Positions 11,982-23,046 of a DNA stretch of 64,000 nucleotides are shown one piece after another. The notes under the pieces were generated by a model that was not told the DNA's origin, ran no database searches, and saw only the letters and a list, made by a program, of their open reading frames with translations. Position 1 is the first letter of the stretch; each line of letters opens with the position of its first letter. The stretch is from the NCBI GenBank assembly GCA_905235745.1, contig CAJOMN010000009.1, forward strand, positions 62,001-126,000, given 5' to 3'. Both the position numbers and the translations under genes were made by a program. The stretch is from an uncultured Lachnospiraceae bacterium. Its GTDB lineage: Bacteria; Bacillota; Clostridia; Lachnospirales; Lachnospiraceae.

Positions 11982-12006
11982 TCGGTAAATTTTATGAATG
12001 ATTTTA

Positions 12007-12036
12007 TTGCTTAATGCACCGTTTATGTATTATAAT
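12007..12036 (+). promoter_or_regulatory. promoter of pckA
   Basis: TTGCTT at 12007-12012 and a perfect TATAAT at 12031-12036 are separated by 18 bases, about 55 bases ahead of the pckA start. The -10 box matches the vegetative sigma factor consensus exactly. Confidence 0.7.
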
Positions 12037-12092
12037 CGTCTTCGGTAAACAAATCGCAAAGATTTATATAAAGAAAAGGAGTGATACTAATT

Positions 12093-13706
12093 ATGGCTAA
12101 CATTGATCTTACAAAGTATGGCATAACAGGTACAACGGAGATCGTCTACAATCCTTCGAACGAGACGCTTTTCGATGAGGAAATGAAGCCCGAGCTTACC
12201 GGTTACGACAAGGGTCAGCTTACAGAGCTTGATGCGGTTAACGTTATGACGGGTATATACACCGGACGTTCACCCAAAGACAAATTCATTGTCGATGATG
12301 CCAAGTCACATGATACGGTATGGTGGACAACAGAGGAATATCCGAATGACAACCATCCCGCAACACAGAAGGCATGGGACGAGTGCAGGAAGCTTGCGGT
12401 TAATGAGCTTTCCAACAAGAGACTGTTTGTTGTCGATGCATTCTGCGGCGCCAACAAGGATACGCGTATGGCAGTACGTTTCATAATGGAAGTTGCATGG
12501 CAGGCACATTTCGTAAGAAATATGTTCATCAAGCCCACCGCTGAAGAGGAAGCTTCATTCGAGCCCAACTTCGTTGTATATACTGCTTCCAAGGCCAAGG
12601 TCGACAACTACAAGGAGCTCGGCCTTAATTCCGAAACGGCTGTACTGTTCAATGTATCGAGCCGCGAGCAGGTTATCCTGAACACATGGTACGGCGGAGA
12701 AATGAAGAAGGGTATGTTCTCGATGCAGAATTACTTCCTGCCTCTTGACGGTATCGCTTCGATGCACTGCTCCGCAAATACAGATATGGAAGGTAAGCAT
12801 ACAGCTATATTCTTCGGACTGTCCGGAACAGGTAAGACGACACTTTCAACAGATCCCAAGAGACTTCTTATCGGTGACGACGAGCACGGCTGGGACGACA
12901 ACGGCGTATTCAACCTTGAGGGCGGCTGCTATGCGAAGGTTATCAACCTTTCCAAGGAGAACGAGCCTGACATCTACGGCGCGATCAAGAGGGACGCTCT
13001 TCTTGAGAACGTTACTGTTGACAAGGACGGCAAGATCGACTTTAACGACAAGTCCGTAACAGAGAACACTCGTGTTTCCTATCCTATCGAACACATCAAG
13101 AATATTGCCAAGAATGTGAACGGTATTTCATCGGGTCCTGCGGCTGAAAATGTTATATTCCTTTCGGCCGATGCATTCGGTGTACTTCCTCCGGTATCCA
13201 TTCTTACACCCGAGCAGACACAGTACTACTTCCTGTCGGGATTTACGGCTAAGCTCGCAGGTACGGAGCGCGGCATCACCGAGCCCACACCTACATTCTC
13301 TGCATGCTTCGGACAGGCTTTCCTGGAACTGCATCCTACCAAGTACGGCGAGGAGCTCGTCAAGAAGATGCAAAAGAGCGGTGCCAAGGCATATCTTGTT
13401 AATACAGGCTGGAACGGAACAGGCAAGAGGATCTCGATCCCCGATACAAGAGGTATCATTGATGCCATACTTAACGGCGACATCAAGAAGGCTCCGACGA
13501 AGAAGATCCCTTACTTTGATTTCGAAGTACCTACCGAGCTTCCCGGGGTCAGCACCGAGATACTCGATCCGAGAGATACATACGCAGATCCCTCACAGTG
13601 GGACGAGAAGGCAAAGGATCTTGCAGGAAGGTTTATCAAGAACTTCAAGAAGTATGAGACCAACGATGCCGGCAAGGCTCTTGTTGCGGCAGGTCCCAAG
13701 CTTTGA
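12093..13706 (+). CDS. pckA: phosphoenolpyruvate carboxykinase (ATP)
   Basis: Interconverts oxaloacetate plus ATP with PEP plus CO2. In fermenting gut Clostridia the enzyme often runs toward oxaloacetate, but direction cannot be read here. The 537-residue protein shows the PEPCK Walker [14 protein letters not shown], the metal-binding [22 protein letters not shown] and the [11 protein letters not shown] opening. Start set at [10 protein letters not shown] (12093), with AAAGGAGTGAT upstream; an in-frame ATG 12 bases earlier lacks spacing. Codon use is noticeably biased toward a few preferred codons compared with neighbours, as expected of a highly expressed gene. It has its own promoter and a strong terminator and stands alone. 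Confidence 0.97.
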
Positions 13707-13752
13707 TCTGAATCCATTACGGCAGAGTAATCTGCGAAGATGGACGTATGAT

Positions 13753-13792
13753 AAAACCCCGCGAAGGCTTTATGGCCCGGCGGGGTTTTTTA
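13753..13792 (+). terminator. rho-independent terminator of pckA
   Basis: AAAACCCCGC at 13753-13762 pairs with GCGGGGTTTT starting at 13780, a 17-base loop lies between, and a T run follows. Confidence 0.9.
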
Positions 13793-13796
13793 TATA

Positions 13797-13825
13797 TCCA
13801 CAAGGCCGGTATTATATGTTATAAT
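13797..13825 (+). promoter_or_regulatory. probable promoter of the tyrS operon
   Basis: TCCACA at 13797-13802 (four matches to TTGACA) and TATAAT at 13820-13825 with 17-base spacing. Transcription would begin near 13832, leaving a leader of about 155 bases before tyrS. Confidence 0.55.
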
Positions 13826-13842
13826 TCGTAATTGTGTATATT

Positions 13843-13960
13843 GGGTGGTGTAAAGTTTTCTATGAAAACTTTGCAGCACGTAGGCCACGACTCGTTTATC
13901 CTGCACGAAGTGCTGGATGCCACCCCGGCGAGGGGCGAAGCGAGCTTTTAATGGCGTGGC
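13843..13960 (+). ncRNA. structured leader or repeat element ahead of tyrS (unassigned)
   Basis: Several pairings can be drawn by eye. GGGTGG at 13843-13848 pairs with CCACCC at 13920-13925. AAAGTTTTC at 13852-13860 pairs perfectly with GAAAACTTT at 13864-13872. CAGCAC at 13874-13879 pairs with GTGCTG at 13910-13915. These form a three-way junction. The CCCC at 13923-13926 could instead pair with GGGG at 13932-13935, and GCCACG at 13884-13889 in the third loop with CGTGGC at 13955-13960 near the ribosome binding site. Mutually exclusive helices suggest regulation, but the element could equally be a dispersed palindromic repeat. It does not contain a convincing T-box motif. A 29-codon frame (13862-13951) lies inside but lacks a ribosome binding site. 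Confidence 0.5.
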
Positions 13961-13987
13961 TGTCAAGAATTGAATCGGAGGGATGAT

Positions 13988-15217
13988 ATGAAGATATATG
14001 AAGAATTGGTAGCCAGAGGCCTTATAGCGCAGGTAACCGATGAAGAAAGAATAAGGGAACTTGTCAATAACGGAGAGGCTACATTTTATATAGGATTTGA
14101 TCCTACGGCCGACAGCCTTCATGTCGGACATTTTATGGCACTGTGTCTTATGAAGAGGCTGCAGATGGCCGGCAACAGGCCGATCGCGCTGCTCGGCGGC
14201 GGAACCGGGATGATTGGCGATCCTTCCGGAAAGACCGAGATGCGCAAGATGCTGACCAAAGAGACGATTGACCATAATATAGAATGCTTCAAACAACAGA
14301 TGAGCCGCTTTATTGATTTTTCCGACGGGAAGGCTCTTATGGTCAATAATGCAGACTGGCTGCTAACGCTCAATTACGTTGATCTGCTCCGTGAAGTGGG
14401 GGCTGATTTTCATGTGAACAATATGCTGCGTGCCGAGTGCTACAGGCAGCGTCTCGAACGTGACGGCGGATTGTCGTTCCTTGAATTCAACTACATGATA
14501 ATGCAGAGCTATGATTTTCTCGAGCTGTACAGAAGATACGGATGCAATCTCCAGTTCGGCGGCGACGACCAGTGGAGCAATATGCTCGGAGGACGTGAGC
14601 TCATCAGGAAGAAATACGGAGAGAAGAAAGCTGATGCGATGACGATAACACTGCTGCTCAATTCCGAGGGGCAGAAGATGGGCAAGACCGTCGGGGGCGC
14701 GGTATGGCTCGATCCCGACAAGACAAGCCCTTATGATTTCTACCAGTACTGGAGAAATGTTAATGACGCCGATGTATTAAAATGTATCCGTATGCTGACC
14801 TTCCTGCCTCTTGAACAGATAGACGAGATGGATTCATGGGAAGGCGCAAAGCTTAATACCGCGAAGGAGATACTTGCATACGAGCTCACAAAGCTCGTTC
14901 ACGGTGAAGAAGAAGCCGGGAAGGCTCAGAACGCGGCACGGTCCATATTCTCATCGGGCGATTCGTCGGATATGCCGACGGTTACGATAGGCGATAACGA
15001 TCTGAAGGACGGTTCCATCGATATATGCACCATACTCATTAAGTGCGGCTTTGCCACATCAAGATCCGATGCGAGAAGATGCATAGAAGGCGGCGGGGTA
15101 AGCATTGACGGCGATAAGGTAACGGATATCTATCAGTCGTTTGAAGGCTCGGAATTTGCCGAGGGGCGCGTCGTTAGAAAAGGCAAGAAGAACTATAAAA
15201 AGGTCATATATAAATGA
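13988..15217 (+). CDS. tyrS: tyrosyl-tRNA synthetase
   Basis: Charges tRNA-Tyr. The class I signature region reads GFDPTADSLHVGH, and the KMSKS-equivalent loop is KMGKTVGGAVW. NYMIMQSYDFLELY and FGGDDQWSNMLGGREL are tyrosine-site motifs of bacterial TyrRS. A C-terminal S4-like RNA-binding domain follows (about residues 345-409, ARRCIEGGGVSIDG). The predicted 409 residues fit the family. GGAGGG lies 5 bases ahead of the ATG at 13988; the longer frame from a TTG at 13970 would bury that site. The stop overlaps the next start by four bases (ATGA), coupling it to the adenylating enzyme. Confidence 0.97.
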   Translation: MKIYEELVARGLIAQVTDEERIRELVNNGEATFYIGFDPTADSLHVGHFMALCLMKRLQMAGNRPIALLGGGTGMIGDPSGKTEMRKMLTKETIDHNIECFKQQMSRFIDFSDGKALMVNNADWLLTLNYVDLLREVGADFHVNNMLRAECYRQRLERDGGLSFLEFNYMIMQSYDFLELYRRYGCNLQFGGDDQWSNMLGGRELIRKKYGEKKADAMTITLLLNSEGQKMGKTVGGAVWLDPDKTSPYDFYQYWRNVNDADVLKCIRMLTFLPLEQIDEMDSWEGAKLNTAKEILAYELTKLVHGEEEAGKAQNAARSIFSSGDSSDMPTVTIGDNDLKDGSIDICTILIKCGFATSRSDARRCIEGGGVSIDGDKVTDIYQSFEGSEFAEGRVVRKGKKNYKKVIYK

Positions 15218-16731
15218 GCAGCGGTATGAAGACCAACATTCTTGAATATCTCGAGGAAGCCGCAAGGGTATTTCCGGATAAATGCGCATATTTTGATGAG
15301 GAGCAAAGCTATACCTATTCGCGGCTTCTTGCCGAGTCAAGGGCGGTTGGGGCAAGGCTTATCGGAAAAGGAGATTTCAAATGCCGCCCCGTTGTGATCT
15401 ATATGGAGAAATCCCCCAAAGTGCTCGCTGCCTTCTGGGGGTGCCTGTACAGCAGGAACTTCTATGTGCCGCTTGATACCGCCATGCCCGAGGTCAGGAT
15501 CAGGATGATAGTCGAAAATCTCAAACCGGCCGCTGTCATTACTGATATGGCATACTACGATATGGCGCGCAAATTCTCCAATAACGTATTCATATTTGAG
15601 GAGATGATCACGACGCCTGTTGATGAAGAGGCGATAGATGCAAGGCTTCTGACAGCGCTTGATACCGATCCGGTATATGTACTGTATACGTCGGGCTCGA
15701 CCGGAGTACCGAAGGGTGTCGTTGTCAGCCACAGGTCGCTTATAGACTATGTCGAACAGTTCTGTAACGAAATATCAATAACAGAAGAAGATGTGATAGC
15801 GAACCAGGCTCCCTTCTATTTTGATGCCTCACTTATAGACATATACTGTACGCTTGCCGCAAAGGCTTCAATGGGGATAGTCCCGGTCGAATATTTCTCG
15901 GTGCCCAAAAAGCTCCTTGAATTCCTGCAGAAGTATAACGTAACGACTATACGCTGGGTTCCCTCGGCAATGAAGATGGTGTCGACGTTCAAGGGATTTG
16001 CCTCGGTCCGTCCGGATAAGCTTCGAAAGATCATATTCGGAGCGGAAAGCATGCCGGTAAAGGTCTATAATTACTGGAAAGAGAATTATCCCGACGCCGT
16101 CTTTGTGCAGATCTACGGTCCCACGGAGATCACGGGGGTATGCACGTACCATATTGTCGACCGTGAGTATTCGGATGACGAGACAATACCTATAGGCAAG
16201 GCTTTCAGGAATACGGAGGTATTCCTGCTTGATGATGAGAACAGGCTGATCAGCAGATCGGATGTCATCGGAGAGATATGCGTCAAGGGCAGCTGCCTTG
16301 CAAACGGATATTACAATTCCCGTGAGAAGACCGACGAGGTATTCGTCCAGAATCCGCTCAATCCCTATTACAACGAGAAGATATACAGGACGGGAGACCT
16401 TGCAAGATACAATGACAGGAAAGAGCTCGTATTCGTGTCACGGAAGGATTACCAGATAAAGCATATGGGACACCGGATAGAGCTTGGCGAGATAGAAACG
16501 GCGGTTATGACTCTTCCCGGTATGAAGAACGCATGCTGCGTATATGACGAGCGGCGGCAGAAGATCGTTCTGTTCTATGAATCGGAATCATATGATGATG
16601 TTACTCTTGCCGAAGCATTGAAGACAAGACTGCTGCGTTATATGATACCAAACGTCACGAAAAAGCTTGATGATTTTCCGCTCCTTCGAAGCGGAAAGGC
16701 AGACCGGGTAAAGCTTAAGGAAATGATATGA
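15214..16731 (+). CDS. amino acid adenylating enzyme, DltA-like
   Basis: A 505-residue ANL-superfamily enzyme expected to activate an amino acid as aminoacyl-AMP and load it on the adjacent carrier protein. The P-loop YTSGSTGVPKG, FDASLIDIY with the Asp that binds the alpha-amino group in this class, IYGPTEITG, YRTGDLARYN and the C-terminal catalytic Lys region RSGKADRVKL are present. It resembles DltA (D-alanine ligase) in length and order. The pocket segment reads FGAE (residues 275-278) where DltA proteins have FCGE, so the Cys reported to help select D-alanine is replaced by Gly276. The substrate is therefore open. It overlaps tyrS and is followed by carrier, MBOAT and SGNH genes, a dlt-like order. 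Confidence 0.8.
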   Translation: MSSGMKTNILEYLEEAARVFPDKCAYFDEEQSYTYSRLLAESRAVGARLIGKGDFKCRPVVIYMEKSPKVLAAFWGCLYSRNFYVPLDTAMPEVRIRMIVENLKPAAVITDMAYYDMARKFSNNVFIFEEMITTPVDEEAIDARLLTALDTDPVYVLYTSGSTGVPKGVVVSHRSLIDYVEQFCNEISITEEDVIANQAPFYFDASLIDIYCTLAAKASMGIVPVEYFSVPKKLLEFLQKYNVTTIRWVPSAMKMVSTFKGFASVRPDKLRKIIFGAESMPVKVYNYWKENYPDAVFVQIYGPTEITGVCTYHIVDREYSDDETIPIGKAFRNTEVFLLDDENRLISRSDVIGEICVKGSCLANGYYNSREKTDEVFVQNPLNPYYNEKIYRTGDLARYNDRKELVFVSRKDYQIKHMGHRIELGEIETAVMTLPGMKNACCVYDERRQKIVLFYESESYDDVTLAEALKTRLLRYMIPNVTKKLDDFPLLRSGKADRVKLKEMI

Positions 16732-16746
16732 TATGGAGGCATGTTA

Positions 16747-16974
16747 ATGGACAGGATTATTGAGATACTGCGGGAGATCCATCCCGAGACGGACTATGAG
16801 AATGAAACGCATCTGATCGACAACAGGATATTTGATTCATTTGACGTTGTAACGCTTGTCGGGGAGCTTATGGATGAATATGACATAGAGATCACGGCAG
16901 AGCATATGATACCGGAGAATTTTAATTCGGCATCTGCCATATATGCGCTTGTACAGTCATTAGAGGAAGAGTGA
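16747..16974 (+). CDS. acyl/aminoacyl carrier protein, DltC-like
   Basis: A 75-residue carrier protein. The phosphopantetheine attachment Ser is Ser31 in RIFDSFDVVTLV, with the usual DSx motif showing Phe in place of Leu or Met. The rest is a four-helix acidic protein ending EEE. I take the ATG at 16747, which places GGAGG (16735-16739) seven bases upstream; the ATG at 16741 would leave one base. It lies between the adenylating enzyme and the MBOAT protein, as DltC does in dlt operons, and its stop lies inside the spacing before the MBOAT start, so expression is coupled. Confidence 0.85.
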   Translation: MDRIIEILREIHPETDYENETHLIDNRIFDSFDVVTLVGELMDEYDIEITAEHMIPENFNSASAIYALVQSLEEE

Positions 16975-16976
16975 AC

Positions 16977-18572
16977 ATGTCATTTGCCTCGATGGGTTTT
17001 GCCTTTTTCGTAACAGTTGTTATTGTTATCTTTTATATCGTGCCGGCAAAGTTCCAGTGGGTAGTTCTTCTGGCAGCAAGCTGGTATTTCTACGGATATT
17101 ACAGCTTTAACGATCTTGTCTATATCATCATTACGACCGTATCCGCATATGTGTGCGCCGCACTTATTGAAAACGCAAGGATACGGCAGGATGCATATCT
17201 TAAGGACAATGCGGAGACCCTGTCCAAAGAGGACAGGAAAGAGTATAAGGCTCGTACGAAGAAGCACCAGAGGCTGTTCCTGATATGTACTCTTGTACTT
17301 AATTTCGGCATACTGGCATATCTGAAATATGCCAATATTACTATCGCATATATTAATATGTACAGGCTGAAGTGGTTTGGAGATACTGATTTTATCCCTT
17401 TTATCCGGGTGCTTCTGCCGCTCGGCATATCCTTCTATACATTCCAGACAATGGGATACCTGATCGATATATATTACGGCAAATATGCCAGGGAGCGTAA
17501 TTTCCTGAAGTTTGCCCTATACGTATCGTTCTTCCCGCAGATAGTCCAGGGACCGATCAGCCGTTTCGGGCAGCTTGCCCCGCAACTGTACAGTCCCAAG
17601 AAGTATGATTTTAACAATATCAGATCCGGCTTCTACAGGATCATGTGGGGCCTGTTCAAAAAGCTTGTTATCGCAGACAGGCTTGCCGGATATGTTACTT
17701 CCGTAATGTCGCAGAAGGAATACTTCGGCGGATTCTATATACTTCTGGCAGTATTCTTCTATTCGATGCAGATATACGGTGATTTTTCCGGAGGTATAGA
17801 TATTGCCTCGGGTGTTGCCGAGATGTTTGGGATTAGGCTTACCGAGAACTTCGAGCGACCGTTCTTTTCCAAATCGATCTCGGAGTACTGGCAGAGGTGG
17901 CATATCACACTCGGAACATGGTTCAAGGACTATATATTCTATCCGCTGTCCGTCAACAAGAAGATATTAAAGCTCGGGAAACGCTTACGGGAGCACGGGC
18001 ATGAATCGCTCGGAAAGCGTATTCCGATCTATATCCCGATGCTGTTTGTATGGATACTGACCGGTATGTGGCACGGGTCGGAAAGCCGTTTTGTCGTGTG
18101 GGGACTGTTTAACTATGTATTCATCGTTCTTGGAACGGAACTTGAAGGTGTATCGGCGCGTATTACCGGACGCCTACGGCTGCGGGAGAGCGGAACGCTT
18201 ATGAAATCATACAGGGCGTTCAAAACATTCTGGCTGATGTCGTTCCTGCGGCTGTTTGATATCAACCAAACCCCGTCGGACGCTTTTCGCGCCTTCAGGC
18301 TCATATTTACCGACTGGAGAACATTTGATATCGTCAAGGTCTATGAACAGCTGTCTCTTCCGCAGGAGGACTTTATCGTAGCTGCAGCTGCGATAGTAAT
18401 ATTGTTTGTATTTGAGCTCATCCAGAGAAAGGGGAGCGTCAGGGAGAGGATATTTGCGATGCCTGTAGCGTGCCAGTGGGTGATTTTGTCGGTGCTTTTC
18501 GTCGCGGTATCCGTATTCGGGTATTACGGACCCGGGTATGATGCGTCGGCATTCATATACGGAGCGTTCTGA
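16977..18572 (+). CDS. MBOAT-family O-acyltransferase, DltB/AlgI-like
   Basis: A polytopic membrane protein of 531 residues that would pass an acyl or aminoacyl group from the carrier protein across the membrane onto a polymer hydroxyl. Family marks are the FPQIVQGPISRFGQ segment, EYWQRWHITLGTWFKDYIFYPL and the catalytic His366 in LTGMWHGSE. Roughly ten hydrophobic segments are visible, including the first at residues 6-23. The start at 16977 has GAGGAA 9 bases upstream; a GTG two codons earlier overlaps the carrier stop. In dlt operons this role belongs to DltB; AlgI-type acetyltransferases share the fold, but the adenylation and carrier partners favour an aminoacyl donor. Confidence 0.88.
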   Translation: MSFASMGFAFFVTVVIVIFYIVPAKFQWVVLLAASWYFYGYYSFNDLVYIIITTVSAYVCAALIENARIRQDAYLKDNAETLSKEDRKEYKARTKKHQRLFLICTLVLNFGILAYLKYANITIAYINMYRLKWFGDTDFIPFIRVLLPLGISFYTFQTMGYLIDIYYGKYARERNFLKFALYVSFFPQIVQGPISRFGQLAPQLYSPKKYDFNNIRSGFYRIMWGLFKKLVIADRLAGYVTSVMSQKEYFGGFYILLAVFFYSMQIYGDFSGGIDIASGVAEMFGIRLTENFERPFFSKSISEYWQRWHITLGTWFKDYIFYPLSVNKKILKLGKRLREHGHESLGKRIPIYIPMLFVWILTGMWHGSESRFVVWGLFNYVFIVLGTELEGVSARITGRLRLRESGTLMKSYRAFKTFWLMSFLRLFDINQTPSDAFRAFRLIFTDWRTFDIVKVYEQLSLPQEDFIVAAAAIVILFVFELIQRKGSVRERIFAMPVACQWVILSVLFVAVSVFGYYGPGYDASAFIYGAF

Positions 18573-18584
18573 CCGGAAAATCAT

Positions 18585-19583
18585 ATGAGAACGAAGAGGG
18601 TACTGACAGTAATATTCAAGATAGTCCTGATAGTGTTAATGTATGAGACATTAACACGGATTATGATGCCCAAATATATATTTGAGAACCAGGACGGAAG
18701 GATCACAAGGGAGTACTATAGCTCCGCAAAGTATGATGATGTCATATTTGTCGGGTCCTCGACCGTATTTTCGGGGATAGATCCTGCCATATTATGGAAT
18801 GATGCCGGTATCTCGTCATATATCAGGGCGAATGCTTCACAGCCTATGTGGATATCGTATTATATGGTAGAGGATGCCGTGCGCTGCCACAAGCCGGAGC
18901 TTGTCTGCATCGATACGACGTTCATTAAATACGAGGATGATTATGTTGAAGAGCCAAGTACCCGCAAGGCGCTTGACGGCATGCGCCTGTCGCCGTCAAA
19001 GATCGGCGCGGTCAATGCTTCAATGGGAGAAGATGAGAAGATGATAGAGTATATCATCCCGCTTTTCCGGTTCCATACGAGATGGAAGGAGCTTACGTGG
19101 AACGATATCAGATACGCGTGGTATAATAAGAAAGTCACATTAAACGGCTTTATCGAGGATGACGAGATCGATCCCGTCACAGAGCCGGAGCTTATATACA
19201 CGGCCGAGGCAAAGGAGCTTGGACCCCGCAATATGGAATATCTGTGCAGGACGATAGAACTGTGTCAGGAAAACGGCATAGAAGTCATGGTGTTTAAGAT
19301 GCCGTCGCATTCATCCAACTGGAATGCCGTATATGATGAACAGATAGCGGAAGCGGTCAGCCGTTACAAAATAGACTACATTAATTTTGACGGTTTAAAT
19401 GATGAGATAGGTATTGATTACAGCACCGATACGCCTGATGCGGGATCGCATCTCAATTCCTCCGGCGCTTACAGGTTTTCGGCCTATCTGGCTGATTACA
19501 TTACGGAGAGATTTGATGTGACCGACCGCAGGAATGACGAACAGTACGTCAAATACTGGAACAGGAATACTAACAGTTTGTGA
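18585..19583 (+). CDS. membrane-anchored SGNH-like protein, DltD/AlgX-like partner
   Basis: A 332-residue protein with one N-terminal membrane helix (about residues 6-24) and an extracytoplasmic SGNH-like domain. The serine block is FVGSSTVFSGIDPAIL (Ser58/Ser59), and the C-terminal acid-His block is DAGSHLNSSGAYRFSAYL. It takes the place of DltD as the last dlt-type gene, where such proteins transfer or edit aminoacyl or acyl groups at the cell surface. Overall similarity to DltD cannot be judged without a search. It starts 12 bases after the MBOAT stop, with GGAAA upstream. Its stop codon lies inside a perfect 11-base inverted repeat. Confidence 0.72.
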   Translation: MRTKRVLTVIFKIVLIVLMYETLTRIMMPKYIFENQDGRITREYYSSAKYDDVIFVGSSTVFSGIDPAILWNDAGISSYIRANASQPMWISYYMVEDAVRCHKPELVCIDTTFIKYEDDYVEEPSTRKALDGMRLSPSKIGAVNASMGEDEKMIEYIIPLFRFHTRWKELTWNDIRYAWYNKKVTLNGFIEDDEIDPVTEPELIYTAEAKELGPRNMEYLCRTIELCQENGIEVMVFKMPSHSSNWNAVYDEQIAEAVSRYKIDYINFDGLNDEIGIDYSTDTPDAGSHLNSSGAYRFSAYLADYITERFDVTDRRNDEQYVKYWNRNTNSL

Positions 19584-19602
19584 ACGGATCGGATCCGTTC
19601 AC
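19580..19602 (+). repeat. intercistronic stem-loop between the SGNH-like gene and eam
   Basis: GTGAACGGATC at 19580-19590 is the exact reverse complement of GATCCGTTCAC at 19592-19602. It folds into a 9-base-pair stem with a 5-base loop and covers the upstream stop codon. No T run follows, so it may act on mRNA stability or partial attenuation, not full termination. Confidence 0.55.
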
Positions 19603-19618
19603 TGTTTATGGAGATAAT

Positions 19619-20842
19619 ATGGACGACAAGAGAAGGATATCGCTTGAAAGGGCAAATGAACTGCATGAGGAAATAGAAGATTATCTTGCCTTCAAGGATG
19701 AGTTCATGCGCGAAACATCCGAAATAAGGGATGTCATATCCGAAAAGCACAAGGAAGAGCTTATAGAATACTTCGGGGCAACCCGGGAAGAGTGGGACGA
19801 CTGGCACTGGCAGCTCAAGAACCGGATAAGCTCCGTATCTTTGCTGTCGAGGTTTATAAGGCTTACAGATGACCAGTACCGTATGTTCGAAGAAGTATCC
19901 GGTAAATACCGCTGGGCAACGACTCCGTATTATCTGTCGCTTATGGATTACGAGGACATGAGCTATCCGATCAATCTGATGGCGTTACCTTGCGCCGCTG
20001 AAAATGATCCGAGGGGCGAGCTTGATCCGATGAGCGAAGAGTATACCAATCCCGCTCCGTGTATTACGAGAAGATATCCGAACCGGCTGATCATAAATGT
20101 TACAAGCTCATGTGCCGTATTCTGCCGCCACTGCCAGAGGCGCAGAAAGATAGGAGAATGCGACCGCATAGAATCGGAAGAGAACATCAATGCGGCGATC
20201 GAATATATCAGAAACTGTCGGGAAATAAGAGATGTACTCATCACGGGCGGAGATCCGCTCATGCTGCCTGACGAAATGCTCGAGAATATCATCGGCAAGG
20301 TACGCGCGATCGGCCATGTTGAGATGATCAGGATCGGCACCAGGCTTCCGGTCACGATGCCGCAGCGTATCACGCCGCAGCTGTGCGATATGCTGAAGCA
20401 ATACCATCCCCTGTATATGAACATACAGTTCAATCATCCGGGAGAGCTTACAAGGGAAGCCGTAAAAGCATGCGGTATGCTTGCGGATGCCGGCATCCCG
20501 CTCGGCAACCAGATGGTATTCCTGAAGGGTGTCAATAATGATAAATATGTTGTCCAGATGCTGAATGAGGGTCTGCTGAAGGCACGTGTAAGGCCTTACT
20601 ATATCTTCCATCCGAAGCAGGTTACTGGAACAGGGCATTTCCAGATAACCGTAGAGGAGGGTCTTAGGATAATGAAGTATCTTCGCGGCCATACATCGGG
20701 ACTGGCGATACCGCAGTATATCCTAAACGCTCCCGGGGGACTTGGCAAGATACCTCTTCTTCCCGAATATATCAGGGAAAGCGACAGCGAGCATATCGTT
20801 CTGACGACGTGGGAAGACAAGGAGGTTGAGATAATATATTGA
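19619..20842 (+). CDS. eam: glutamate 2,3-aminomutase (radical SAM, KamA family)
   Basis: Radical SAM, PLP-dependent aminomutase of 407 residues. The cluster motif is CAVFCRHC (Cys165, Cys169, Cys172). The N-terminal WDDWHWQLKNRI and the PLP-lysine region APGGLGK (Lys377) are family marks. In lysine 2,3-aminomutase two Asp residues (293 and 330 in the Clostridium subterminale enzyme) bind the substrate epsilon-amino group. At the matching places this protein has Lys333 (FHPKQVTGTGHF) and Asn370 (ILNAPGG), the pair known from C. difficile glutamate 2,3-aminomutase (Lys332, Asn369). It should therefore make beta-glutamate, known as an osmolyte in other organisms. Start at 19619 because GGAG lies 5 bases ahead. 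It follows the dlt-like genes by 35 bases. Confidence 0.82.
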   Translation: MDDKRRISLERANELHEEIEDYLAFKDEFMRETSEIRDVISEKHKEELIEYFGATREEWDDWHWQLKNRISSVSLLSRFIRLTDDQYRMFEEVSGKYRWATTPYYLSLMDYEDMSYPINLMALPCAAENDPRGELDPMSEEYTNPAPCITRRYPNRLIINVTSSCAVFCRHCQRRRKIGECDRIESEENINAAIEYIRNCREIRDVLITGGDPLMLPDEMLENIIGKVRAIGHVEMIRIGTRLPVTMPQRITPQLCDMLKQYHPLYMNIQFNHPGELTREAVKACGMLADAGIPLGNQMVFLKGVNNDKYVVQMLNEGLLKARVRPYYIFHPKQVTGTGHFQITVEEGLRIMKYLRGHTSGLAIPQYILNAPGGLGKIPLLPEYIRESDSEHIVLTTWEDKEVEIIY

Positions 20843-20850
20843 ATTCGTTC

Positions 20851-20879
20851 TTGTATATTTAGCGGATAGCTATTATAAT
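20851..20879 (+). promoter_or_regulatory. promoter of the 6S-like RNA
   Basis: TTGTAT at 20851-20856 and TATAAT at 20874-20879, spaced by 17 bases. Transcription would begin near 20886. Confidence 0.7.
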
Positions 20880-20885
20880 AATATC

Positions 20886-21096
20886 AGCCTGGAATGTACG
20901 AACAAGTTCCTGTAATTTTGAACCTACATCACTTTAAACGGGATTCCTACATTGCCGGTCGGATGTCAGGCCTCATTATCCGGTGGAAGGCAGAAGATAC
21001 GGTTGCGGTTACCCACCTGGCATATTGCTAGGAGTCAAAATACAGGAATCGGCATTTCGGGTATCGGATTCTATAGATTCTATAGAATCTTTTTTG
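20886..21096 (+). ncRNA. ssrS: probable 6S RNA
   Basis: This 316-base intergenic stretch holds a promoter, a long self-complementary transcript and a terminator, with no reading frame. The closing stem is clear: TTCCTGTA at 20907-20914 pairs with TACAGGAA at 21041-21048, and TTTTGA at 20916-20921 with TCAAAA at 21035-21040. Inside are the TTTGAACCTACA and GGGATTCCTACATTG stretches that I associate with clostridial 6S RNAs, and a long central hairpin around CGGTCGGATGTCAGGCC. 6S RNA mimics an open promoter and binds housekeeping RNA polymerase. The fold and size fit; the identity rests on remembered motifs and has not been tested with a covariance model. Confidence 0.7.
21066..21096 (+). terminator. 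terminator of the 6S-like RNA
   Basis: GATTCTATAG at 21067-21076 pairs with CTATAGAATC at 21080-21089 around a 3-base loop and is followed by a run of six T residues. Confidence 0.85.
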
Positions 21097-21158
21097 TTTG
21101 ATTTTCCGCCTGATTATGCTATCATTCTAAAGTTGGAGCGTATCAGGTAATCTCGCTT

Positions 21159-22025
21159 ATGAAGAAGATTAAAGAATCCAAAATATACAGGGAATTGGAG
21201 CAATTCATATATATCGCTTCCGATAAACGGCTGGACTCTTATTCCGCCGGCGCAGCCTTTTATATATTTATCTCCTTTGTTCCCTTTATACTGATACTTC
21301 TGTCGACAATTAAGTATCTGCCTTTTACAAAAGAAGATCTGCTTTTGTTTATTGAAGATATCCTTCCCGGCGAGCGTGACTATTTTATCTCCTATATAAT
21401 AGACGAACTGTACCGGCAGGGTATCGGCGTACTGTCGATTTCTATTTTTGCTGCCATCTGGGCAAGCGGCAGAGGAGTACTCGGCATCACCAAGGGCATG
21501 AATGAGATATTTGATGCCAAGGACCCGAGAAATTACCTGATAGTCAGGGCAAGGAGTGCGGTATTTACCGTATTTCTGATGATTTCGATAATCCTCCTGC
21601 TTGTTCTGTCTGTCTTCGGAAATACGATCACGACGATAGTCAGACAGTATATTACGATACCGGAGAGGATATCCGGCATACTGGAGGTCAAGAACTCCAT
21701 TATGTTCCTTGTTCTGTTTATCCTGTTCATGTTCTTCTACTGCGTGCTTCCGGCCAAGAGGATACGAGCCGGCTCGCAGATACTCGGCGCTGCCGGGGCA
21801 AGCCTGTTGTGGATACTGTTCACAAAGCTGTTTTCATTCTATCTGTCTACGTTTAACGGATACAGTATGTACGGCAGTTTTGCCATAATCCTCATACTGG
21901 GGATATGGCTCTATACCGGAATGTATATAATGTTTATGGGGGCACTTGCCAATGTAGTTATCGCCTCCAGGAAAGGTAAAAGCTATGAAAGACCGAATAA
22001 GCGAATTGAGGGAAAGGTTCAGTAA
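21159..22025 (+). CDS. YihY/BrkB-family membrane protein
   Basis: A 288-residue polytopic membrane protein of the YihY (once 'ribonuclease BN') family. The SYSAGAAFYIFISFVPFIL opening, WASGRGVLGITKGMNEIF in the middle and the YGSFAIILILGIWLYTGMYI stretch are typical. About six hydrophobic segments are visible. The nuclease activity once given to this family belongs to another protein, so the function is unknown. Its 3' end overlaps the pheS start by 41 bases, so it is almost certainly co-transcribed with pheST, with the 6S terminator just upstream. Confidence 0.88.
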   Translation: MKKIKESKIYRELEQFIYIASDKRLDSYSAGAAFYIFISFVPFILILLSTIKYLPFTKEDLLLFIEDILPGERDYFISYIIDELYRQGIGVLSISIFAAIWASGRGVLGITKGMNEIFDAKDPRNYLIVRARSAVFTVFLMISIILLLVLSVFGNTITTIVRQYITIPERISGILEVKNSIMFLVLFILFMFFYCVLPAKRIRAGSQILGAAGASLLWILFTKLFSFYLSTFNGYSMYGSFAIILILGIWLYTGMYIMFMGALANVVIASRKGKSYERPNKRIEGKVQ

Positions 22026-23046
22026 AGAGCTCTCACAGGTTTCCGATCAAAAATCACTTGAGGAACTTCGTATCGCGTTCCTGAGTAAAAAGGGACAGAT
22101 CTCAGTACTCATGCAGGAACTGTCGAAGATACCGAATGAGAAGAAAAAGGAAGCCGGCCAGCTTATCAATTCGTTCAAGCAGGAAGTAAACGAAAGATTT
22201 GATGCGAGAATGGAAGAGATCAGGAAGATCGAGGAGGAATGCCTTATATCTTCCACGGAAAGCTATGACGAATCGCTTCCGGTAAACAGCGATACCGGTT
22301 CATATCATCCGATAACACTCGTCCAGCGTGAGCTTGAGGATATATTTGAATCAATGGGGTTTGATGTGGAGGATTACAGTGAGATAGTTGACGACTACCA
22401 CTGCTTTGAGGCGCTTAACATCCCGCAGTATCATCCGGCGAGGGATATGCAGGACACATATTATCTCACGACTCCGGGCCAGCTCCTGAAGAGCCATACT
22501 TCTGCCGCGCAGAATGCGATCATGCACAAGTACGGCAAGCTTCTCAAAGAGAAGGGCCGCCCGATAAGAGCCGTTTTCCCCGGAAGGTGCTTTCGAAACG
22601 AGGCTATCGATGCCTGCCATGAGAATACATTTTTCCAGATGGAAGGCATCATGATCGACAAGGATATATCGATATCCAATCTTATATATTTTATGAAGAC
22701 GATGCTTTCCGAAGTATTTGAAAGGGATGTAAAGGTAAGGCTCCGTCCCGGATTCTTCCCTTTTGTCGAACCCGGATTTGAGCTTGATATACAGTGCCTG
22801 ATATGCGGCGGGAAGGGATGCCCTTCATGCAAGAACTCGGGGTGGCTGGAGCTGTGCCCGTGCGGAATGATTCATCCGAATGTGCTCAAATACGGCGGTA
22901 TCAATACCGAAGAGGATCCGTATGAATACACGGGATTTGCTTTCGGTCTCGGTCTTACAAGGCTGGCGATGATGAAGTACGGGGTCGGTGACATACGTAC
23001 ATTCAACGAAGGCGATCTGAATGCTTTGTCGCAGTTCGTATCGTAA
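21985..23046 (+). CDS. pheS: phenylalanyl-tRNA synthetase, alpha subunit
   Basis: Catalytic subunit of the alpha2-beta2 enzyme that charges tRNA-Phe. The 353-residue protein begins with an N-terminal coiled coil (about residues 1-85), then class II motifs: HPITLVQRELEDIFESMGF, the motif 2 region PGRCFRNEAIDACHENTFFQMEG, and motif 3 FAFGLGLTRLAMMKYG. The cysteine-containing LICGGKGCPSCKNSGW segment suggests a bound metal as in some bacterial PheS. The start lies inside the end of the YihY gene, with AGGAAAGG upstream. No T-box leader is visible upstream, which is unusual for a Firmicute pheST. Confidence 0.96.
   Translation: MKDRISELRERFSKELSQVSDQKSLEELRIAFLSKKGQISVLMQELSKIPNEKKKEAGQLINSFKQEVNERFDARMEEIRKIEEECLISSTESYDESLPVNSDTGSYHPITLVQRELEDIFESMGFDVEDYSEIVDDYHCFEALNIPQYHPARDMQDTYYLTTPGQLLKSHTSAAQNAIMHKYGKLLKEKGRPIRAVFPGRCFRNEAIDACHENTFFQMEGIMIDKDISISNLIYFMKTMLSEVFERDVKVRLRPGFFPFVEPGFELDIQCLICGGKGCPSCKNSGWLELCPCGMIHPNVLKYGGINTEEDPYEYTGFAFGLGLTRLAMMKYGVGDIRTFNEGDLNALSQFVS

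What the first reader, a model, noticed from the sequence alone, without database searches (positions are those of the whole stretch)
15214..20842. Dlt-like surface aminoacylation genes in one unit with a beta-amino-acid-forming enzyme
Seen: adenylating enzyme, carrier protein, MBOAT transferase and SGNH-like protein in dlt order, then eam 35 bases later, no promoter visible between. Known: dlt systems attach D-alanine to teichoic acids. Inference: the machinery may load a non-standard amino acid, possibly beta-glutamate, onto an envelope polymer. The alternative is that eam only makes an osmolyte and shares a transcript by chance; the hairpin before eam could separate them.
Basis: inference. 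Interest (0 to 1): 0.7.

Follow-up and report, generated by a model that had tools for sequence, protein, structure and literature searches.

The report
Surface aminoacylation operon with glutamate aminomutase
A gut-type bacterium carries a variant of the machinery that attaches amino acids to the cell surface, consistently paired with an enzyme that probably makes the unusual amino acid beta-glutamate, which suggests that this amino acid (not the usual D-alanine) may be what decorates the surface.

Summary
In detail: at 15214-20842 lie a stand-alone adenylation enzyme (A), a carrier protein (CP), an MBOAT, an SGNH protein and, 35 nt later, a glutamate 2,3-aminomutase (Eam). The pairing is conserved. 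In the genus the SGNH gene lies upstream of eam in 28 of 29 Eam-bearing genomes (the 29th is cut by a contig end), in several chromosomal contexts; 4 genomes of 3 other genera have the same order. More distant Eams (51-59% identity) are unlinked in 17 of 17 and 4 of 4 stretches examined. Homologous operons carry an amino-acid racemase; a paralogous type carries a LysA-like decarboxylase. The predicted A pocket follows the partner enzyme: 22 of 22 Eam-linked DAIR-type, 15 of 15 racemase-linked DAKC-type, 15 of 17 decarboxylase-linked DVK-type. Where one clade lost eam, two of ten pocket residues changed. Best reading: Eam makes beta-glutamate, A loads it on CP, and the MBOAT (with fused FIYGAF shuttle motif) and SGNH protein pass it to a surface polymer. 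No chemistry was tested; the pocket lacks VinN-type beta-amino-acid features; the acceptor is unknown; pocket classes are clades, so independent events are few.

The parts
15214..16731 (+). stand-alone adenylation (A) enzyme, 505 aa ORF (likely start 15226); pocket code DAIRIGIGVK (D204 A205 I208 R247 I274 G276 I300 G308 V309 K495)
   Evidence: GrsA numbering of the pocket mapped with a recalled GrsA sequence
16741..16974 (+). DltC-like carrier protein, 77 aa ORF (likely start 16747), Ser in RIFDSFDV
16971..18572 (+). MBOAT acyltransferase, 533 aa ORF (likely start ATG 16977); H311 and H368 invariant in 11 aligned sequences; C-terminal acyl-shuttle hexapeptide FIYGAF
18585..19583 (+). SGNH protein with N-terminal helix (residues 2-27, probably a membrane anchor); GSS at 57-59 and D285, G287, H289 invariant in 15 aligned sequences
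19580..19602 (+). hairpin overlapping the SGNH stop codon; no U-tract; not seen at the short junctions of relatives
19619..20842 (+). glutamate 2,3-aminomutase (Eam), 407 aa; CxxxCxxC from 165; K333 and N370 at the two substrate positions that are Asp/Asp in lysine-type homologs
20883..21067 (+). 6S RNA (RF00013) directly downstream of eam; a neighbour, not part of the pathway
   Evidence: also found in 5 of 9 relatives' stretches searched
21066..21090 (+). terminator-like hairpin with T-run, directly after the 6S RNA and probably its terminator

Best explanation
The five genes form one dedicated pathway. Eam converts L-glutamate to beta-glutamate (3-aminoglutarate). The A enzyme adenylates it and loads it as a thioester on the carrier protein. 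The MBOAT moves the aminoacyl group across the membrane onto the tyrosine of its own C-terminal FIYGAF motif, and the membrane-anchored SGNH protein transfers it to a hydroxyl of a surface polymer, most likely a polysaccharide or teichoic-type polymer. Shown here: the genes, their motifs, the conserved linkage, and the match between A pocket and neighbouring amino-acid-making enzyme. Inferred: every chemical step, the identity of the aminoacyl group, and the acceptor.
For: Linkage: Eam at >=72% identity in 29 of 37 genomes of the genus (three of them as pieces at contig ends); the SGNH gene lies upstream on the same contig in 28 of these 29, 18 directly (gap -11 to 49 nt) and 10 with trpS (in two, also another gene) between. 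Four of 4 Eams at 63-68% in three other genera sit in CP-MBOAT-SGNH-EAM, 3 with A and the fourth cut by a contig end. Stand-alone Eams: 0 of 17 class-level stretches and 0 of 4 have the cluster; 0 of 11 more with flanks of only about 1.5 kb (L034-L044). Co-evolution: Mantel r 0.916. Eam specificity: K/N at the two substrate positions in every homolog >=50% identical that covers them, D/D in those of 45-49%. Pocket: Eam-linked 22 of 22 DAIR, racemase-linked 15 of 15 DAKC, decarboxylase-linked 15 of 17 DVKI or DVKV; two further Eam-linked A enzymes from other genera also DAIRIGIGVK. Arg at pocket position 278, where a code of Asp- and Asn-activating domains, mostly Asp, has Lys (DLTKVGHVGK, PMC12283262 passages). 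Eam-less clade: 3 of 3 DAVRIGNGVK; 2 of its 6 changes at otherwise invariant positions are pocket residues (hypergeometric P 0.032); nested inside the Eam lineage. Transfer parts: FxYxxF and WHG motifs, SGNH fold with DltD as best Foldseek hit. Context: some relatives carry the cluster among glycosyltransferase and nucleotide-sugar genes.
Against: The pocket lacks the features described for VinN-type beta-amino-acid enzymes (bulky 236, larger 301, beta13-beta14 loop one residue shorter; PMC11253843 passages): here 236 is Ala, 301 is Gly and the loop aligns without a gap to LgrA. The Glu/Gln code quoted in PMC12283262 (DAQDLGVVDK) does not resemble this pocket. Eam is 64 bits below the TIGR04368 cut-off. 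In 10 genus loci trpS interrupts the unit. Three genomes keep A-CP-MBOAT-SGNH without Eam, and 11 of 29 A enzymes outside the genus have no recognised partner enzyme, so the machinery can work without one. The pocket change with eam loss is one evolutionary event, and the pocket classes are clades of the A tree, so the match rests on few independent events. Two of 17 decarboxylase-linked A enzymes (L240, L244) lack the DVK code. The AlphaFold model of A was too poor to examine the pocket (pLDDT 51.6). In the incednine precedent the aminomutase activity of IdnL4 was not observed in vitro, only its genetic need (PMC11284099 passages).
Confidence: 0.6

Rival explanations
1. The A enzyme loads an acidic alpha-amino acid (L-Glu or Asp) on the carrier, the MBOAT/SGNH pair attaches that, and Eam has a separate role (osmolyte or nitrogen metabolism) that happens to share the transcript.
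For: Pocket has alpha-type features (Asp235, Ala236, Gly301, loop not shortened). Arg278 fits an acidic side chain. Beta-glutamate is a known compatible solute, mainly in methanogens and a few bacteria (PMC1224877 passages), and eam is an occasional target of Na+ riboswitches (PMC9337991 passages). Three genomes run A-CP-MBOAT-SGNH without Eam.
Against: Eam stays with the cluster in several chromosomal contexts and in four genera, its divergence tracks that of A, pocket residues changed where eam was lost, and homologous or paralogous operons carry other amino-acid-modifying enzymes. No riboswitch reached the Rfam gathering score at window 12000-23000; this is weak, as no Na+ riboswitch was found beside 18 stand-alone Eams either.
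Confidence: 0.17
2. The loaded beta-amino acid is real but is not delivered to a polymer: the MBOAT/SGNH pair acylates a secreted lipid, glycolipid or small metabolite.
For: No acceptor gene is constant: flanks vary between housekeeping genes and polysaccharide loci. No polymer-specific partner was seen beside the cluster in the window.
Against: MBOAT plus SGNH with a fused FxYxxF motif is the arrangement described for envelope polymer acylation (PMC12148441 passages). Some relatives carry the cluster among polysaccharide genes. The genome has three matches to the TagF-type family PF04464.
Confidence: 0.13
3. Ordinary D-alanylation: the cluster is a divergent dlt operon that attaches D-alanine, and eam is a passenger.
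For: Gene order A-CP-MBOAT-SGNH recalls dlt; DltA, DltB and DltC models give significant but sub-threshold scores; Foldseek's best SGNH match is DltD.
Against: All dlt equivalog models are far below cut-off; the shuttle motif is fused to the MBOAT and no separate DltX-like gene lies in the unit as read; the pocket has an Arg (the recalled DltA pocket is D-L-M-T-M-C-T-V-A-K); the conserved linkage with Eam would have no meaning for D-Ala.
Confidence: 0.06

Closest known systems
[quoted passage not shown]
   Same: Stand-alone A enzyme, carrier protein, MBOAT and SGNH protein encoded together.
   Different: Curated Dlt models not met; acyl-shuttle hexapeptide fused to the MBOAT instead of on DltX; pocket predicted for an acidic substrate; dedicated aminomutase.
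PatA/PatB-type MBOAT-SGNH O-acetyltransferases (peptidoglycan; by the paper's model also alginate, cellulose)
   Same: MBOAT with C-terminal FxYxxF motif plus SGNH partner (PMC12148441, passages).
   Different: Those systems are described there as using acyl-CoA and lacking a carrier protein; here an A enzyme and carrier protein supply the acyl group, a mixture of the two described designs.
Incednine starter-unit pathway (IdnL4 aminomutase, IdnL3 decarboxylase, IdnL1 A enzyme) and the related VinN family
   Same: A glutamate 2,3-aminomutase gene feeds a stand-alone A enzyme and carrier protein (PMC11284099, passages).
   Different: There beta-glutamate is decarboxylated first and goes to a polyketide; IdnL4 activity was not seen in vitro. 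Here no decarboxylase, and transfer genes of the envelope type. VinN-type pocket features not met.
Glutamate 2,3-aminomutase of Clostridioides (Ruzicka and Frey 2007; recalled, the paper is not held)
   Same: TIGR04368 is the best-scoring model; K/N substrate residues.
   Different: The cluster-linked Eams are at least 62% identical to the window's; the stand-alone Eams examined are 50-59% identical and unlinked.
Exosortase-A-associated ligase/decarboxylase pair (TIGR03098/TIGR03099)
   Same: The paralogous operon of this genome pairs an A enzyme and carrier with a decarboxylase that hits TIGR03099 at 167 bits.
   Different: Below the cut-off of 478; concerns the paralog, not the window cluster.

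Membership tests
Dlt D-alanylation system | DltA equivalog (TIGR01734) | tested here: not met
   282.9 bits against 559.85
Dlt D-alanylation system | DltB and DltC equivalogs | tested here: not met
   133 against 375; 29.3 against 68
Dlt D-alanylation system | acyl-shuttle motif on a separate microprotein DltX, none on the MBOAT | tested here: not met
   FIYGAF at the MBOAT C-terminus; criterion from PMC12148441 passages
Dlt D-alanylation system | SGNH transferase of DltD type | tested here: inconclusive
Dlt D-alanylation system | activation of D-alanine | not testable with these tools
   needs an enzyme assay
MBOAT-SGNH envelope acyltransferase pair | C-terminal FxYxxF and invariant His on the MBOAT, adjacent SGNH gene | tested here: met
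   FIYGAF in the window; FxYxxF in 24 of 24 MBOATs at DAIR-type loci; H311 and H368 invariant in 11 sequences
MBOAT-SGNH envelope acyltransferase pair | acyl-CoA donor, no carrier protein (PatA type) | tested here: not met
   A enzyme and carrier protein encoded next to the MBOAT; the donor itself not assayed
Glutamate 2,3-aminomutase | TIGR04368 equivalog cut-off | tested here: not met
   586 bits against 650, best of all models; a near miss, so membership is probable, not established
Glutamate 2,3-aminomutase | Lys/Asn instead of Asp/Asp at the two substrate-binding positions | tested here: met
   K333 and N370; D/D in the homologs of 45-49% identity. That K/N marks Eam is recalled
Glutamate 2,3-aminomutase | conversion of L-glutamate to beta-glutamate | not testable with these tools
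   needs an enzyme assay
VinN-type beta-amino-acid A enzyme | bulky 236, larger 301, shortened beta13-beta14 loop | tested here: not met
   Ala, Gly and no gap against LgrA; criterion from PMC11253843 passages

The most novel reading that the evidence does not exclude
Lachnospiraceae carry a modular family of dlt-like surface aminoacylation operons in which the amino-acid-making enzyme (glutamate 2,3-aminomutase, acidic-amino-acid racemase, or LysA-like decarboxylase) is swapped and the A-enzyme pocket retuned, so that different strains decorate their surface with different glutamate- or aspartate-derived groups. The window's version would be the first beta-glutamate decoration of a cell envelope: a zwitterionic group, unlike the cationic D-alanine.
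Probability: 0.5. Interest if true: 0.82.

Novelty: new variant of a known kind. Interest (0 to 1): 0.7.

Why it matters
D-alanylation is the textbook way to tune surface charge with an amino-acid ester. A system that makes its own non-standard amino acid and carries it through an MBOAT-SGNH pair would show that the chemistry is modular. It also joins two designs described as separate: carrier-fed Dlt with DltX, and CoA-fed MBOATs with a fused shuttle motif (PMC12148441, passages). The pocket codes give testable predictions for dozens of uncultured Lachnospiraceae genomes. Beta-glutamate was reported raised in the gut metabolome of people with Parkinson's disease and correlated there with Methanobrevibacter smithii and Clostridium spp. 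(PMC12502400, passages); whether eam operons of this kind contribute was not examined.

Tried and rejected
Terminator between the SGNH gene and eam: rejected, since the hairpin has no U-tract and was not seen at the short junctions of relatives. First taken as the end of the operon, the hairpin at 21066-21090 turned out to follow a 6S RNA directly, so it is no proof of where the eam transcript ends. Chance neighbourhood from housekeeping synteny: rejected, because the cluster with Eam occurs beside tyrS/pheST, with trpS, and among polysaccharide genes. Na+ riboswitch control as a sign of an osmolyte role: none at window 12000-23000, none in 9 relatives' cluster stretches, but also none in 18 stand-alone Eam stretches, so it does not discriminate. 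Eam-less clade compensated by another Eam: of the 37-38% KamA homologs of G334 and G394 only that of G394 (L105) was examined and has D/D; G401 has no match. AlphaFold model of the A enzyme: pLDDT 51.6, not used. PDB-fold ranking could not decide between DltD and other SGNH enzymes. Whether such a pairing is in print: searches (0 papers; 7; 2; 2; 3; 96, 30 listed; 0) of the held open-access library showed no report; most papers were seen as listings only, passages were read in PMC11284099, PMC1224877, PMC12148441, PMC12502400 and PMC9337991; most subscription papers are not held.
Full report

IS THE LINKAGE REAL? In 37 genomes of the genus, Eam at >=72% identity is found in 29. An A ortholog at >=61% is found in 31, plus a 95-residue piece in G393. 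Both are in 28; Eam alone in 1 (G425, whose contig begins in the carrier gene); A alone in 4 (G334, G394, G401, G413); neither in 4. I took stretches around the Eam and A hits of these genomes, not of the 4 with neither. Eam has the SGNH gene upstream on its contig in 28 of 29 genomes, the window included; in G403 the contig begins with trpS. In 18 of the 28 nothing lies between (gaps -11 to +49 nt; the start of the 49-nt case, L143, is uncertain). In the other 10, trpS lies between, in two of them with another gene as well. The A gene lies within 12 kb on the same strand in 21 of the 29; in 7 of the other 8 the A hit is on another contig, and G425 has none. The chromosomal surroundings differ: tyrS and pheST; tyrS with trpS; GT2 and fucosyltransferase (PF01531) loci; and a locus with UDP-GlcNAc 2-epimerase, UDP-sugar dehydrogenase, GT8 and GT2 genes. 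Among 397 family genomes, Eams at 63-68% occur in 4 genomes of 3 other genera, and all 4 are in the same order (L224, L301, L302, L303), with A present in 3 and cut by the contig end in L302; 15 further family genomes have homologs of 42-48%, not examined for context. By contrast, 17 class-level Eams at 51-59% (of 55 class genomes with a match, mostly the best-ranked) show none of the partner genes in the stretches fetched, some of which are cut by contig ends, and neither do 4 further ones nor 11 with short flanks. In 21 loci the pairwise distances of A and Eam correlate (Mantel r 0.916, 0 of 9999 permutations as high).

WHAT DOES EAM ACT ON? At the two positions that are Asp/Asp in the homologs of 45-49% identity (lysine-type), the window and every homolog of >=50% identity that covers them have Lys/Asn (four rows do not reach these positions). 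From memory, this Lys/Asn pair distinguishes the characterised glutamate 2,3-aminomutase; the paper is not held. The TIGR04368 score (586) is below the cut-off (650), a near miss.

WHAT DOES THE A ENZYME ACTIVATE? The ten pocket positions (235-517 in GrsA numbering, mapped from a recalled GrsA sequence) read DAIRIGIGVK. In one search I classed 80 A-domains from the fetched loci (hits under 330 aligned residues, at 33% identity or less, or in frames of 1200 aa or more were dropped). Those with Eam within 12 kb on the same strand are DAIR-type in 22 of 22; with a racemase within 6 kb, DAKC-type in 15 of 15; with the LysA-like decarboxylase, DVKI- or DVKV-type in 15 of 17 (exceptions L240 and L244). 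Of the 26 with no such partner in reach, 7 are DAIR-type (6 from genomes whose Eam is on another contig; 1 from G413, where no Eam was found and the contig ends after the MBOAT gene), 3 are the eam-less clade, 6 have the DVKIMSLCNK code, 2 the DAKCAGLGMK code and 8 other codes. Outside the genus 11 of 29 A-domains have no recognised partner. The racemases reach the cut-offs of TIGR00035 and CuyB, amino-acid and cysteate racemase families, in 5 of 5 tested. A code of Asp- and Asn-activating domains has Lys at pocket position 278 (DLTKVGHVGK; PMC12283262, passages), so Arg there suggests an acidic substrate; the Glu/Gln code quoted there (DAQDLGVVDK) does not resemble this pocket. In the racemase class the pocket cation, besides the catalytic Lys, is at 239 instead.

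A NATURAL EXPERIMENT. Three genomes (G334, G401, G394) have A-CP-MBOAT-SGNH followed by yihY or pheS where eam would be. Their A enzymes read DAVRIGNGVK. Of 174 positions invariant in the 28 other A enzymes (the window and 27 relatives, G413 included; the paralog and the G393 piece dropped), 6 changed in all three, and 2 of the 6 are pocket positions (hypergeometric P 0.032). A control clade with Eam and only 61-62% identity changed at 16 of 209 positions, one of them in the pocket (Ile to Val). On the tree (midpoint root) the eam-less clade is nested inside the Eam lineage, so this is one loss event, not three. The partner classes are likewise largely clades, so the match between pocket and enzyme rests on a handful of events, however many rows there are.

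AGAINST THE BETA-GLUTAMATE READING. VinN-type beta-amino-acid enzymes have a bulky residue at 236, a larger residue at 301 and a shortened beta13-beta14 loop (PMC11253843, passages). The window's enzyme has Ala, Gly and a loop that aligns without a gap to LgrA. Either beta-glutamate is bound in another way (Gly at 330 could make room; inference) or the substrate is an alpha-amino acid. The model of A was too poor to help. Eam elsewhere may serve osmoprotection: a paper lists eam among occasional Na+ riboswitch targets (PMC9337991, passages). I found no riboswitch near the window's eam and no Na+ riboswitch in 9 cluster stretches, but none beside 18 stand-alone Eams either, so this does not discriminate.

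HOW THE TRANSFER PROBABLY WORKS. The MBOAT ends in FIYGAF. In Dlt the FxYxxF motif sits on DltX; in PatA-type MBOATs it is fused to the C-terminus and receives the acyl group on Tyr, which the SGNH partner then uses (PMC12148441, passages). That paper states that MBOAT/SGNH pathways other than Dlt lack a similar carrier protein. Here both occur together: carrier-fed, but with a fused shuttle. The motif is present in 24 of 24 MBOATs at DAIR-type loci, 19 of 20 at DAKC-type and 16 of 18 at DVKI-type loci; the three eam-less MBOATs end FIYGNI. A precedent for an aminomutase gene feeding an A enzyme exists in incednine biosynthesis, by gene disruption, with the in vitro activity not observed (PMC11284099, passages). 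The acceptor is not known: the genome has three PF04464 (TagF-type) matches, and some relatives carry the cluster among polysaccharide genes.

VERDICT. Observation confirmed; conserved pairing shown; loading of beta-glutamate the most likely reading at about 0.6; acceptor polymer inferred. The searches named under Tried and rejected turned up no report of such a pairing, in an open-access library only and mostly judged from listings. I rate it a new variant of a known kind.

Noticed in passing
L069 6081-11649 (same genome, contig C14): Paralogous operon in the same genome: LysA-like PLP decarboxylase, MBOAT, SGNH-position protein, carrier and A enzyme with code DVKIMSLCNK; a pPLP gene lies near the paralogous A gene in 15 of 20 genus stretches fetched.
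   Followed up: partly
L226-L230, L232-L235, L237, L239, L242, L243, L258 (other Lachnospiraceae genera): Homologous operons with an amino-acid (TIGR00035/CuyB) racemase directly upstream of the A gene in 14 loci (5 of 5 tested pass both cut-offs).
   Followed up: partly
L225-L231, L233, L235, L238, L239, L248, L253, L255: A related small lipoprotein-like gene of roughly 190 aa after the SGNH gene in 14 of the 40 surveyed stretches; no NCBIfam match in two tested.
   Followed up: no
window 20883-21067: A 6S RNA lies directly downstream of eam; 6S RNA was also found in 5 of 9 relatives' cluster stretches (L155, L165, L166, L167, L301).
   Followed up: partly
window 13844-13961; L069 and L072: An interspersed repeat of about 118 nt upstream of tyrS that shares 24-mers with two other places of the same genome.
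   Followed up: no
L154, L156-L159, L161-L163, L168, L170: trpS lies between the SGNH gene and eam in 10 genomes of the genus.
   Followed up: no
L022, L023: Stand-alone Eam homologs that appear to lie between dnaN and recF (by eye from the translations).
   Followed up: no
G000, several contigs: Twelve Pfam MBOAT matches in one 2.5 Mb genome, one protein counted twice; several may acylate other surface polymers.
   Followed up: no
L240 10716-14084: Decarboxylase-like domain in one 1123-aa open frame with a transglutaminase-like and surface Ig-like domains, beside a DAKC-type A enzyme.
   Followed up: no
L135-L137: In the eam-less clade the MBOAT shuttle motif also changed (FIYGNI, last Phe lost).
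   Followed up: no
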